Of a DNA stretch of 43,125 bases, positions 20,739 through 42,976 are shown piece by piece; position 1 is the stretch's first letter, and every line of letters starts with the position of its first letter. The stretch spans positions 1-43,125 of IMG/VR virus record IMGVR_UViG_3300027851_000054; one strand, 5' to 3'. A model generated the notes under the pieces. That model did not search any database and was not told the DNA's origin. It saw only the letters and a program-made list of their open reading frames with translations. Position numbers and translations under genes: made by a program. This DNA is from a virus.

Positions 20739-21490
20739 TGGCTTACACGGGCAAACCCGGTAACGTTACACCCGGAACGTATGGCAACGGAACCAACGTT
20801 GCCCAGGTCACCGTCAACGCTCAGGGGCAGGTGACAGCCGTTACCAACGTTAGTATCTCGACGGGCGGTGGGGGAACGGTCACCTCGGTTGGGCTCACCT
20901 CTACCGACCTGACCGTTAGCGGTTCTCCGGTTACCACGTCTGGCACGATCACAGCTAACCTGACAACGACGGGCGTAAGCGCGGGTACCTACGGGGACGC
21001 CAGCAACGTTGCGCAGATCACGGTTGACACGAAAGGCCGTGTAACCTCCGTAACGAATGTCCCCGTCTCCGGGGGCGGCGGCTCTGGTACGGTCACCTCG
21101 GTTGGGCTCACCTCTACCGACCTGACCGTCAGCGGCTCGCCGGTTACCACGTCTGGATCTATAACGGCTAACTTGACAACGACGGGCGTTAGCGCGGGCA
21201 CTTATGGGGATGCCAGTAACGTGGCCCAATTTACCGTCGATGCGAAGGGCCGTATCACGTCAGCCACGAACGTCCCCGTCTCCGGGGGCGGTGGTTCCGG
21301 CACGGTCACCTCGGTTGGCCTTAGCTCCACGGACCTGACCGTCAGCGGCTCGCCGGTCACCACGTCCGGCTCTATCACAGCCAACTTGACGACGACGGGC
21401 GTCAGCGCAGGCAGCTATGGCTCGTCTTCCCAGGTCGCCACGTTCACCGTTGACGCGAAGGGCCGGTTAACGGCGGCCAGCAACGTGACG
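19824..21490 (+). repeat. tail-fibre module repeats, 213-bp period in the second gene
   Basis: Six copies of a module start with (A)CGGTCACCTCGGTT-like DNA at about 19824, 20040, 20244, 20876, 21089 and 21302. The last three are exactly 213 bases apart and nearly identical in DNA. Spacing in the first gene is 216 and 204. The near-identity across genes makes this a likely site for recombination and copy-number change. Confidence 0.85.
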
Positions 21491-34591: not shown

Positions 34592-34594
34592 ACG

Positions 34595-34624
34595 AAAACC
34601 CCCGAGCATAATCTCGGGGGTTTT
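34595..34624. terminator. bidirectional intrinsic terminator at the convergence of the two arms
   Basis: A perfect 12-bp stem, AAAACCCCCGAG (34595-34606) with CTCGGGGGTTTT (34613-34624), has a 6-base loop. The A-run and T-run make it work for both strands. It ends the late transcript after the spanins and would also end leftward transcripts after they cross the repeat array. Confidence 0.9.
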
Positions 34625-35018
34625 CTCACTCTACCAAGTTGGTACGCTCCCATATATCGGCTCACTCTGCCAGGCTGGTACTCTTAAGGCTCCTGGTTCC
34701 CTCTATGCCAATGATACTCTTCTCTATTTTGGGTCACTAATCGGTCATGGCACGCTCATTGACCTAGGTTCACTTCCTTGATTTGGTACTCTCATCTATT
34801 GTGGTTCACTCGACCATCTTGGCACTCTCAAGGCAGCGGGTTCACTCGTCCGTCATGGCGCTCTCATTGTTCTAGGTTCACTCGACCGATATGGTACTCT
34901 AATAGCATTTGATTCACTTCCCCGCTTTGGTACTCTCATCTATTGGGGTTCACTCGGTCCTTTTGACAATCTTTCGGGCTGTGGTTCACTACCCTCTATT
35001 GGCACTCTCTTGGCACTC
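34623..35018. repeat. 22 x 18-bp phased repeat array (GSLxxx/GTLxxx in the + frame)
   Basis: The gene-free stretch 34592-35032 holds this array. It has 22 consecutive 18-bp units with no insertion or deletion, alternating GGTTCACTC-nine and GGTACTCTC-nine, so the higher-order period is 36. In the + frame the units read GSLxxx GTLxxx. Within the conserved nine bases, variation is concentrated at third codon positions (CTC/CTT/CTA, GGT/GGC/GGG). One in-frame TGA is in unit 9 (34779-34781). No ribosome site or start was found, and a terminator lies just upstream. Identical text recurs 144 bases apart (34783 and 34927). It is less GC-rich than its surroundings. Confidence 0.9.
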
Positions 35019-35032
35019 GGTTTAGCTCAAGT

Positions 35033-35830
35033 TCAGATCATATGGGCGTGGCCCAGAATCGCGATAGCGTAGGGCTTCGGTGCAGCGTTACCCGTGGCGA
35101 CCTCGTACCAGTAAGCGTGAAGGTGCGACAGGAAGATCTTCACCGCATAACGCCGGGCACGCGCGTGAATGTGCGCGGGCGGCAGCTTGCCAGAGGCATA
35201 CGCTTTGTAGGCTTCCGTGCTCTTGTCGTACTTCTTCCCCGCCAGAGCCTTCGCGGCCTGTTCAGCGAAGGCGCCGGCTTCATTCTTGGCGATTTCCAAG
35301 TCCTTCCGCTGGCGATACAGTTTCCCGTAAACGTCGTTCTCGTTATTCTGAACTTTGACGAAGCACTCGCCGGCCTTGAAACACAGGACCTTGAGCGAGG
35401 CGTTCCACGGGCGCTTTTCGCCTTTTTCCCAGGTTGACGTGGGGTCAAGGCCGGCGTATCGCCAGATATGCCCCGCCGTGGGGCACCTGGTAATATCGAT
35501 GTGGGCCAAGAGCCCCGCCGCGATAACGGGACCGATACCCGTGATTTCCTTGAGCCAACGCCCTACAGGATGCCCATCGGTGTACTTGTCCAACGCGCGC
35601 TTGATCTGGCTTTCCAAGACGGAACTTTGGTCTTCCAGCCACGAGAGAACCGCATTCGGTTCCGCCTCGCTTAACGCGCGGAGCCGGCCTTGGGCGCGCA
35701 GGCGATCCTCTTGCATCTGGTAATATGCATCAACCAGAAACCGGGCTTCGTGTCCGGACATACCCGAGGCCACGGCGGCCACATCGCGCTTAAGCCGGGC
35801 AACCGGCGTGAGGGTAATCGTATCAGTCAT
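35033..35830 (-). CDS. IS110-family transposase C-terminal-like HhH protein
   Basis: This 265-residue protein has a helix-hairpin-helix at about residues 93-110 (LKEITGIGPVIAAGLLAH). It is followed by HIWRYAGLDPTSTWEKGEKR, PWNASLKVLCFKAGECFVKV and KLPPAHIHARARRYAVKIFL. This matches the Transposase_20 (IS116/IS110/IS902) C-terminal domain. The N-terminal DEDD RuvC-like catalytic domain of IS110 enzymes is absent, replaced by 85 helical residues, and no element ends were seen. It is therefore probably a domesticated or phage-type DNA-binding protein rather than an active transposase. AGGAAG precedes the start, and a candidate promoter of its own lies upstream. Confidence 0.7.
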   Translation of the reverse strand: MTDTITLTPVARLKRDVAAVASGMSGHEARFLVDAYYQMQEDRLRAQGRLRALSEAEPNAVLSWLEDQSSVLESQIKRALDKYTDGHPVGRWLKEITGIGPVIAAGLLAHIDITRCPTAGHIWRYAGLDPTSTWEKGEKRPWNASLKVLCFKAGECFVKVQNNENDVYGKLYRQRKDLEIAKNEAGAFAEQAAKALAGKKYDKSTEAYKAYASGKLPPAHIHARARRYAVKIFLSHLHAYWYEVATGNAAPKPYAIAILGHAHMI

Positions 35831-40697: not shown

Positions 40698-41906
40698 TCA
40701 GAATTCGGAAAACGCGTCGTCCGTATCCGTCTTGACAGAAGGACGCGGGTCTTCATCGGGGACGATGGCCGTGCTTTTGACTTCACGGGTAACCGCCGGT
40801 TGGTCATTGACCTTAAGGCCGTCCACGGCGGCTTTCGCGTCCTTGGCTTTATACCCGAGAGTCTTCAGGACAGCCTCGATTTGGGCCGGGGACCTGATTT
40901 CAGGTTCGGTGAGCAAAGCCGCCTCATCCAACCCGAATTCCACCGATAGCGAAGCGACGATATCCTCTGCACGCAACCCGGCGTTCCAGTTCCGCGTGGG
41001 GCGGCTTTCCACCTCCTTGAAGCCGGGCACAGGGCGACCCTGTTTGAACTCGTGTCGGACAAGGGTTTCGACCGAGTTAAGCCACGTCTTGATGATTTGC
41101 GCCTCGGCATACGCCTTGGCTAAGCTTTCAGGGGTGTAGTTATCCGTGCCCACGACAAACCGTCCTTCTTCATACCGTCCATTCGCTGCGTCCATCACTC
41201 TGGCCCTAAGGCCATCACATATTGGCGCCGCCGGGCAAAATTTGCAATGCTCCCCCGGCGTCGGGGCGTGATTTTCTTCCGTCCGTTTTGCCGCTTCCGC
41301 CACTTCCTCTGCCCAAAGCATAAGGTCAAGGGCAGTCACTTCCCACGTTTTCACGGGGTCGTTCGCCTGCCAGGACCGGGGTTGGACGATAGCGATCTCG
41401 ACGGCTTCCACGTCCCAATCGGGGCGGTTGTACCACGCCCCAAGAGCATAAATCATGGCCTGGTCATTACCTTCGGCCACTACGTCGATGTTAGCCCCGT
41501 ACTTAAGATCAATCACGTATAGCTTTTTCATCGCCGGCTTATACACGATCAGGTCTGCCGTGCCAGCGATGTCCGGGTGTACGGTTGAAACGTCAAACCG
41601 CGCCTCGACCTCCCACAAATCGCCCGGCCTGATCAATGCTCGCGCATAATCCAGATACACCTGAACATGCGCGGCCATGTCATGATCCACGGTAAACCCG
41701 TTGAAGACCTCTCCAATAAAGCGCTGGGCGTTGTACCCGTTCTCAAGGCACGCCTGCGCTAGCTCGTGCGCGGCGGTGCCTTCAGCGGCGTACACCCCGG
41801 ACTCGTTGGGCATCCCCTCTGACAGGCGAACGGAAGCCGGGCAGGCTTTCCACCGCTTTGCCGAGGACGGGGACAGGCGGGCGTGAGCCCGCTCTGCGTG
41901 TTGCAT
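40698..41906 (-). CDS. Cas4-like PD-(D/E)XK nuclease (DUF2800)
   Basis: This 402-residue protein is in the phage DUF2800 family. It has an N-terminal LSPSSAKRWKACPASVRL with Cys22, GTADLIVYKP and LYVIDLKYG (the Asp and D-x-K catalytic residues, about 116-136), and QAMIYALGAWY. HCKFCPAAPIC (about 220-230) supplies three more Cys. One early and three late Cys around a PD-(D/E)XK core are the iron-sulfur arrangement of Cas4/AddB-type nucleases. It is probably an exonuclease for recombination or DNA-end processing. It neighbours SSB as in other phages. The C-terminal 80 residues are variable and acidic. Confidence 0.88.
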   Translation of the reverse strand: MQHAERAHARLSPSSAKRWKACPASVRLSEGMPNESGVYAAEGTAAHELAQACLENGYNAQRFIGEVFNGFTVDHDMAAHVQVYLDYARALIRPGDLWEVEARFDVSTVHPDIAGTADLIVYKPAMKKLYVIDLKYGANIDVVAEGNDQAMIYALGAWYNRPDWDVEAVEIAIVQPRSWQANDPVKTWEVTALDLMLWAEEVAEAAKRTEENHAPTPGEHCKFCPAAPICDGLRARVMDAANGRYEEGRFVVGTDNYTPESLAKAYAEAQIIKTWLNSVETLVRHEFKQGRPVPGFKEVESRPTRNWNAGLRAEDIVASLSVEFGLDEAALLTEPEIRSPAQIEAVLKTLGYKAKDAKAAVDGLKVNDQPAVTREVKSTAIVPDEDPRPSVKTDTDDAFSEF

Positions 41907-42229: not shown

Positions 42230-42976
42230 TCACACCCCCAACCGGTCAAGTTCCGCCGAAAGCTCAGCGTAGAACTCGGCATAACGCCCCGGATCAAGTT
42301 GCGAAAGCCCGCGCGCGTTATACCCCTTCTGAAGCCGCGTCACGACCCAAGTCGTCGCGTAATCCTTGACGCTCTTTTCGGAAGCGCGGGCCGCCCGGTT
42401 AACCAGTCCGATCACATCCGCTTTCGTGACCTCGCGGTCTTCCAGGGAAACCCGGTCCTCGGGGGACACGCTGATATTCGGCTTCGGGTCTTCGTAGGTG
42501 TCGGTTTCCTCGGGAACATCATCAAAGAACGCGTCCGCCTTCGAGGGCGCGGTTACATGCGCCGCCAGGGGAGCGCCATCACGCGGAACGGCATAGCTAA
42601 GCGCGTCCGCCTCCGCCTCGCTTTTACCCTCGGCAAGAGCCGCCCGGTAAACGGCCATCTGTGCCTTGGTACGACGGCGAGGGGCGGGCGCCTCAGCCTT
42701 TTCCGGTTCGGCCTTTTCCGGTTCGGCCTTTTCCGGTTCGGCCTTTTCCGGTTCAGCCTTTTCCGGCTTCAACAGCGACGTCGCAGCGGCGACGAACTCT
42801 TCCGAAGGCTTCTCGGTTCCCTCCTTATACACGTTCCGGACAAGAGCCCCGCGCGGCGTGGCATCAGCGATGGCGTGATGCGCGGCCAAAGAGCAGGCAA
42901 GCGTTTTGAAAAAATCAGCGGCGGCCATAAGTTCTTCAACCGAAGAAGCCGCGTCATATTCAAAAGTAACCTTCAT
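42230..42976 (-). CDS. early protein with a KAEPE pentapeptide repeat linker
   Basis: This 248-residue protein has an N-terminal helical domain (residues 1-70), then five tandem KAEPE pentapeptides forming a charged linker (about residues 69-95). A basic segment follows (PRRRTKAQMAVYRAALAEGK), then an acidic part and a C-terminal helical domain (ADVIGLVNRAARASEKSVKD). The C-terminal part could bind DNA or nucleotides, but no family was recognised. It is upstream of the DUF2800/SSB pair. I chose ATG 42976 because AAGGAA lies upstream. Confidence 0.65.
   Translation of the reverse strand: MKVTFEYDAASSVEELMAAADFFKTLACSLAAHHAIADATPRGALVRNVYKEGTEKPSEEFVAAATSLLKPEKAEPEKAEPEKAEPEKAEPEKAEAPAPRRRTKAQMAVYRAALAEGKSEAEADALSYAVPRDGAPLAAHVTAPSKADAFFDDVPEETDTYEDPKPNISVSPEDRVSLEDREVTKADVIGLVNRAARASEKSVKDYATTWVVTRLQKGYNARGLSQLDPGRYAEFYAELSAELDRLGV
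42697..42771. repeat. five 15-bp tandem repeats
   Basis: Five consecutive 15-bp units (GCCTTTTCCGGTTCG on the + strand) encode the KAEPE repeats of the - strand gene. The units differ at only a few positions. Such a tract is prone to slippage in whole 5-residue steps. Confidence 0.95.

What the first reader, a model, noticed from the sequence alone, without database searches (positions are those of the whole stretch)
34623..35018. Perfectly phased 22-unit, 18-bp repeat array reading GSLxxx/GTLxxx, outside any recognisable gene
Twenty-two 18-bp units run without a single indel, and alternate units differ consistently (TCACTC against ACTCTC), giving a 36-bp super-period. Among the nine conserved bases, positions 3, 6 and 9 vary while the others are nearly fixed, which is the pattern left by selection on a protein in the + frame. 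Yet a terminator lies directly upstream, no start or ribosome site is visible, and unit 9 contains TGA where a sister unit has a CGC Arg codon. Two readings remain. It may be a decayed repeat protein (for example a fibre or hexad beta-solenoid), or a DNA/RNA element whose 18-bp unit only mimics codons. I know no phage element of this description.
Basis: partly seen in the sequence, partly recalled or inferred. Interest (0 to 1): 0.78.

Follow-up and report, generated by a model that had tools for sequence, protein, structure and literature searches.

The report
TIGR guide-RNA array beside TasA gene
The repeat array is a phage-borne TIGR array (a string of paired 9-letter RNA guides) lying just behind the gene for its partner protein TasA, so it belongs to a recently described CRISPR-like but unrelated RNA-guided DNA-binding system; it is not a broken repeat protein.

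Summary
The array is real: 22 phased 18-bp units with a 36-bp super-period, plus one truncated unit. It is not a decayed + strand protein. That gene's product is a Tas protein: NCBIfam TIGR_Tas 222.6 bits against a cutoff of 100; the 11 best solved-structure matches are all TasR or TasH. It has no nuclease domain, so it is TasA. The array has the published TIGR anatomy: edge repeat AGTGAACC, loop repeat AGAGTACCA, two 9-nt spacers per 36-nt unit, truncated edge repeats at both ends, and a strong terminator hairpin. It encodes 11 dual-spacer guides. Of 15 Tas relatives, 14 have a comparable array beside tas; some have 37-bp periods or 17-19-bp steps that would break a reading frame. Two closely related phages share tas and flanks but not spacers. 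The likely job is RNA-guided binding of foreign DNA without cutting; targets are unproven: no self-target was found, and database matches were at chance level. Two guide pairs resemble each other in both spacers. New member of a known kind.

The parts
35033..35830 (-). tasA: 265-aa Nop-domain TIGR-associated protein without nuclease domain
   Evidence: NCBIfam NF052498 222.6 bits, cutoff 100; phmmer to TasR 9mty E 3e-15 and TasH 21kl E 1.5e-8; AlphaFold2 pLDDT 85, 11 best PDB folds all TasR/TasH; Pfam PF02371 only
34623..35027 (-). TIGR dual-repeat array: 12 edge repeats (first and last truncated), 11 loop repeats, 22 spacers of 9 nt, coding 11 predicted tigRNAs of 36 nt
   Evidence: anatomy as in PMC12045711
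35019..35027 (-). 5'-truncated edge repeat (AGCTAAACC) that opens the array
   Evidence: [quoted passage not shown]
34983..34991 (-). first full edge repeat (TAGTGAACC; consensus GAGTGAACC), repeated every 36 bp downwards
35001..35009 (-). first loop repeat (GAGAGTGCC; consensus GAGAGTACC followed by invariant A = box C 'CCA'), repeated every 36 bp downwards
   Evidence: 11 of 11 loop repeats are followed by A
34623..34631 (-). 3'-truncated edge repeat (GAGTGA + terminator stem) that closes the array
   Evidence: published arrays end in a 3' truncated edge repeat
34594..34625 (.). hairpin terminator; symmetric, so also able to serve the + strand lysis genes
   Evidence: RNA fold -30.1 kcal/mol, z -6.3; self-complementary match
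34920..34955 (-). tigRNA unit 3 (spacers CCAATAGAT / AAAGCGGGG), similar to tigRNA unit 7 (34776-34811: ACAATAGAT / AAATCAAGG)
   Evidence: 14/18 spacer positions identical
34848..34883 (-). tigRNA unit 5 (spacers TAGAACAAT / ATGACGGAC), similar to tigRNA unit 8 (34740-34775: TAGGTCAAT / ATGACCGAT)
   Evidence: 14/18 spacer positions identical

Best explanation
It is a TIGR-TasA system carried by a tailed-phage genome. The minus-strand transcript of tasA would run on through the array to the terminator at 34594-34625 (inferred). In published systems the precursor is cut inside each edge repeat, in a Tas-dependent way, into 36-nt tigRNAs; here that would give 11 (inferred from homology). A TasA dimer would hold the AG and CC(A) box motifs of the edge and loop repeats and use spacer A and spacer B to pair with opposite strands of an 18-bp DNA site. 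TasA has no HNH or RuvC domain, so the likely outcome is binding, melting and sharp bending of foreign DNA that blocks transcription or replication of competing mobile elements, rather than cutting. Shown here: the family of the protein, the anatomy of the array, its partner-gene linkage, and spacer turnover against repeat conservation. Inferred: processing, DNA binding and the competitor target. The confidence given is for identity as a TIGR-TasA locus; for competitor interference as its role it is about 0.5.
For: Protein: NF052498 at 222.6 bits, TasR/TasH by sequence and fold. Array: 36-bp unit with two different 9-nt repeats and two 9-nt spacers, truncated edges at both ends and a terminator after the last, as in PMC12045711. 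Linkage: a similar array next to tas in 14 of 15 relatives, 13 from viral contigs and one from a bacterial MAG. L006 and L007: tas with leader 87% and downstream DNA 92% identical, yet no shared spacers. Spacer GC 0.46 against 0.59 for the genome, and no self-target, fit a foreign origin of spacers.
Against: No expression or binding data are available here. The promoter scan found no sigma-70 site at tas. No target could be shown: matches of one composite guide to T4-like gp6 are equalled by exact matches in control registers. The base after the edge-side CC is free (A in only 5 of 10), a departure from the TasR 'CCA' rule.
Confidence: 0.95

Rival explanations
1. Remnant of a + strand hexapeptide-repeat protein (GSLxxx/GTLxxx) that has lost its start and gained a stop.
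For: One + frame has a single stop over 406 bp, and the variable repeat positions fall at codon position 3.
Against: No start or ribosome site; relatives show frame-breaking periods (37 bp; 17-19-bp steps) and stops in the equivalent frames; the same alternating structure lies beside tas in 14 of 15 relatives.
Confidence: 0.01
2. The TIGR locus acts on the phage's own genome (self-regulation, packaging or segregation mark) rather than on competitors.
For: TasA lacks a nuclease, and TasA loci are sometimes in operons with ParB-like genes (PMC12045711).
Against: Best matches of all 11 composite guides in the 43-kb genome are 12-14 of 18, the same as shuffled guides, in both possible target arrangements; no ParB-like gene is adjacent.
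Confidence: 0.1
3. VIPR-type array (GGY/NN vrRNA with a RAMP protein).
For: The + strand shows GGT/GGC at most units; VIPR systems are also phage-borne (PMC13142463).
Against: The partner protein is Nop-type Tas, not RAMP; the repeats are 9+9+9+9 and not an alternation of GGY and NN.
Confidence: 0.01
4. Decayed or silent TIGR array: repeats have drifted so that only some units are processed.
For: Some repeats deviate (loop AAGATTGTC at 34965; edge GAGGGAACC at 34695).
Against: Box bases AG and the final C are invariant in all full repeats, and the tas frame is intact over the whole family model.
Confidence: 0.07

Closest known systems
TIGR-TasA dual-repeat systems (Faure et al. 2025, PMC12045711; e.g. 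Flavonifractor plautii FpTIGR)
   Same: Solo Nop-domain protein; adjacent array of alternating edge and loop repeats with 9-nt spacers, 36-nt units, truncated end repeats, terminator
   Different: Box D-like start is AG rather than the UG of TasR arrays; the base after the edge-side CC is free here; spacer pairs 3/7 and 5/8 are similar to each other
TIGR-TasR / TIGR-TasH (PDB 9mty; 21kl, 9w04)
   Same: Same Nop fold and same kind of array
   Different: No RuvC or HNH domain here, so no cleavage is expected
IS110 / IS621 bridge-RNA transposases
   Same: Related Nop-like RNA-binding domain; Pfam PF02371
   Different: No DEDD catalytic domain, NCBIfam IS110 model far below cutoff (32 of 140 bits), array instead of a single bridge RNA
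CRISPR arrays
   Same: Repeats interspersed with variable guides next to a partner gene
   Different: Two alternating short repeats, two short spacers per guide, no Cas effector or adaptation genes; evolutionarily separate

Membership tests
TIGR-Tas | Nop-domain Tas protein encoded next to the array | tested here: met
   NF052498 222.6 bits over a cutoff of 100; fold search; 5-nt gap between tas stop and array
TIGR-Tas | Two distinct alternating repeats of 8-12 nt with about 9-nt spacers | tested here: met
   Edge and loop repeats, 36-bp period
[quoted passage not shown]
   35019-35027 and 34623-34631; hairpin z -6.3
TIGR-Tas | Box C/D motifs shared between edge and loop repeats | tested here: met
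   AG start and CC end in both repeats; loop CCA 11/11, edge CCA 5/10
TIGR-Tas | Array processed into 36-nt tigRNAs | not testable with these tools
   Needs small-RNA sequencing
TIGR-Tas | Spacers A and B pair with opposite strands of one DNA site | tested here: inconclusive
   No target above chance
TasA subgroup | No HNH or RuvC domain | tested here: met
   265 aa, Pfam finds only PF02371; alignment to TasR starts at chain residue 153 and to TasH at 115
IS110 transposase | DEDD catalytic domain and IS110 model score | tested here: not met
   32.1 bits against a cutoff of 140, C-terminal part only
Hexapeptide-repeat protein | Open frame with start, conserved frame in relatives | tested here: not met

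The most novel reading that the evidence does not exclude
The array is a set of guides against competing phages in which some sites are covered more than once by guides matched to different variants of the same target (tigRNAs 3/7 and 5/8). It would then record an arms race between phages and give a way to find natural TIGR targets.
Probability: 0.25. Interest if true: 0.6.

Novelty: new member of a known kind. Interest (0 to 1): 0.33.

Why it matters
It explains a striking repeat as a phage-borne RNA-guided system and adds a clean 11-guide TasA locus with a set of relatives to a family whose natural targets are unknown. The very long array in relative L009 and the spacer turnover between L006 and L007 are useful material for the open question of how TIGR arrays grow and what they aim at.

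Tried and rejected
Protein remnant: rejected on frame-breaking periods and stops in relatives. Rfam: no relevant match. VIPR: rejected on partner protein. Self-targets: none above shuffles. Targets among 270 kb of related loci: 7 and 1 hits of 16/18 in the two arrangements, against about 4 expected by my own estimate. IMG/VR scans of composite guides: tigRNA 7 in the [B][rcA] arrangement matches 18/18 a T4-like gp6 homologue in 13 or more contigs, and a T4-like terminase matches tigRNA 8 at 16/18 in frame; but the shifted and reversed registers used as controls also gave exact tigRNA 7 matches in unrelated proteins, so I treat these as chance. The names gp6 and terminase rest on my reading of the sequences and, for the terminase, on annotated relatives. 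BLAST of concatenated 18-mers in cultured phages found nothing; the two 90-nt queries were probably too long for an exact 18-mer to reach E 10, so they are weak. Close relatives of the phage through its DNA polymerase: none found.

Full report
OBSERVATION. The array is as described. From 34623 there are 22 units of 18 bp without indel up to 35018. At lag 36 the region matches itself at 57% of positions, at lags 35 and 37 at 23%; 2,000 shuffles never exceeded 36% at any lag from 30 to 42. Tandem Repeats Finder reports part of it.

PARTNER GENE. On the minus strand an ORF of 265 aa (35033-35830) ends 5 nt before the array begins. Pfam gives only PF02371, a domain of IS110-type transposases. NCBIfam gives TIGR_Tas (NF052498) at 222.6 bits against a curated cutoff of 100, while the IS110 model scores 32 against a cutoff of 140. 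By sequence the best solved structures are TasR (9mty, E 3e-15) and TasH (21kl, E 1.5e-8), then IS621. A model made from the window protein and 14 relatives (mean pLDDT 85, pTM 0.82) has TasR or TasH as its 11 best matches in the PDB. The protein lacks the N-terminal nuclease part: its match starts at residue 153 of TasR and at 115 of TasH. It is therefore of the TasA type, although the NCBIfam model name says 'endonuclease'.

ANATOMY. Read on the minus strand the array is: a 5'-truncated edge repeat (AGCTAAACC); then eleven times spacer A (9 nt), loop repeat (GAGAGTACC), spacer B (9 nt), edge repeat (GAGTGAACC); the last edge repeat is cut short (GAGTGA) and runs into a hairpin terminator (34594-34625; -30.1 kcal/mol, z -6.3). 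This is the anatomy given for TIGR arrays by Faure et al. (PMC12045711): alternating edge and loop repeats of 8-12 nt, 9-nt spacers, truncated edges at both ends, terminator after the last. Bases 2-3 (AG) and 9 (C) are invariant in all full repeats, and all 11 loop repeats are followed by A, matching the box C 'CCA' of TasR arrays; after the edge repeats that base is A in only 5 of 10. The apparent codon pattern comes from relaxed positions 1, 4 and 7 of the repeat.

RELATIVES. A scan of viral contigs with the Tas protein gave 14 loci at 35-58% identity, and one bacterial-genome contig at 64%. In 13 of the 14 viral loci a 36- or 37-bp periodic array lies close to tas, with edge and loop repeats such as GAGCGAGCCA and GAGAGAACCA; only L015 showed none. 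The bacterial contig L041 has one too. L009 has a 37-bp period, and L005, L007 and L008 have steps of 17-19 bp, so no protein frame can be kept. Stops occur in most frames of most arrays. L006 and L007 share tas and leader (87%) and the sequence after the array (92%), but their spacers are only slightly more alike than random (5.6 against 4.5 of 9); L012 and L016 show no clear excess. Conserved repeats with fast-changing spacers is what a guide array should show and a protein should not.

TARGETS. In published work spacer A pairs with one DNA strand and spacer B with the other over 18 bp. The published 8-nt 3' overhang and 'C - 5' rule suggest to me the arrangement [spacer B][reverse complement of spacer A]; another sentence of the paper reads differently, so I tested both. 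There is no self-target: the best matches in the window are 12-14 of 18, as for shuffled guides. Scans of IMG/VR gave an exact match of tigRNA 7 in T4-like gp6 homologues and a 16/18 in-frame match of tigRNA 8 in a T4-like terminase. But other registers, which served as controls, also gave exact matches in unrelated proteins. I conclude that no target is shown. Two facts point to foreign targets without proving them: spacer GC is 0.46 against 0.59 for the genome, and tigRNA pairs 3/7 and 5/8 agree at 14 of 18 spacer positions, which column shuffles reached for two pairs in none of 3,000 trials. The second could reflect guides against variants of one target, or duplication and drift inside the array.

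MECHANISM. Shown here: family, anatomy, linkage, spacer turnover. Inferred from published TIGR systems: transcription with tas, processing to 36-nt tigRNAs, dimeric TasA holding one tigRNA, pairing of the two spacers with opposite strands, DNA bending. Because TasA has no nuclease, the effect is most likely interference by binding, which the authors of PMC12045711 offer as a possibility for TasA in general. The genome context is that of a tailed phage: terminase, portal, virion and DNA-ejection proteins, lysozyme, DNA polymerase A, exonuclease, cytosine methyltransferase.

VERDICT. A clean, new member of a known kind. It is much less mysterious than first thought, but a good example of a system whose natural role is still open.

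Noticed in passing
L009:10951-14720: A relative from IMGVR_UViG_3300027821_000007 has a TIGR array with a 37-bp period and about 96 copies of GAGCGYAGCCG, i.e. on the order of 95 guides; the paper gives 5 to 15 as usual.
   Followed up: partly
L006:2236-2490 and L007:5795-6015: Two related phages share tas and both flanks of the array but not the spacers; a natural pair for studying spacer turnover.
   Followed up: partly
74 Mycobacterium phage records, e.g. KX522649.1:45778-46386: Mycobacteriophages carry a protein 28-30% identical to the central part of TasA, annotated as transposase or DNA-binding protein; whether they have guide arrays was not examined.
   Followed up: no
L015:4847-5803: A Tas relative (35% identity) without a detectable 36-bp array within 2.5 kb; it might use the stem-loop type of array.
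   Followed up: no
window 20876-21420: 213-bp tandem repeat, 2.6 copies at 84% matches, inside a long ORF next to a tail-fibre-like match; probably a tail or fibre repeat.
   Followed up: no
window 42696-42766: 15-bp near-perfect repeat, 4.7 copies (GCCTTTTCCGGTTCG), 98% matches.
   Followed up: no
window 40698-41906 (-): Phage exonuclease family protein (PHROG 69) with a weak Cas4 match below cutoff.
   Followed up: no
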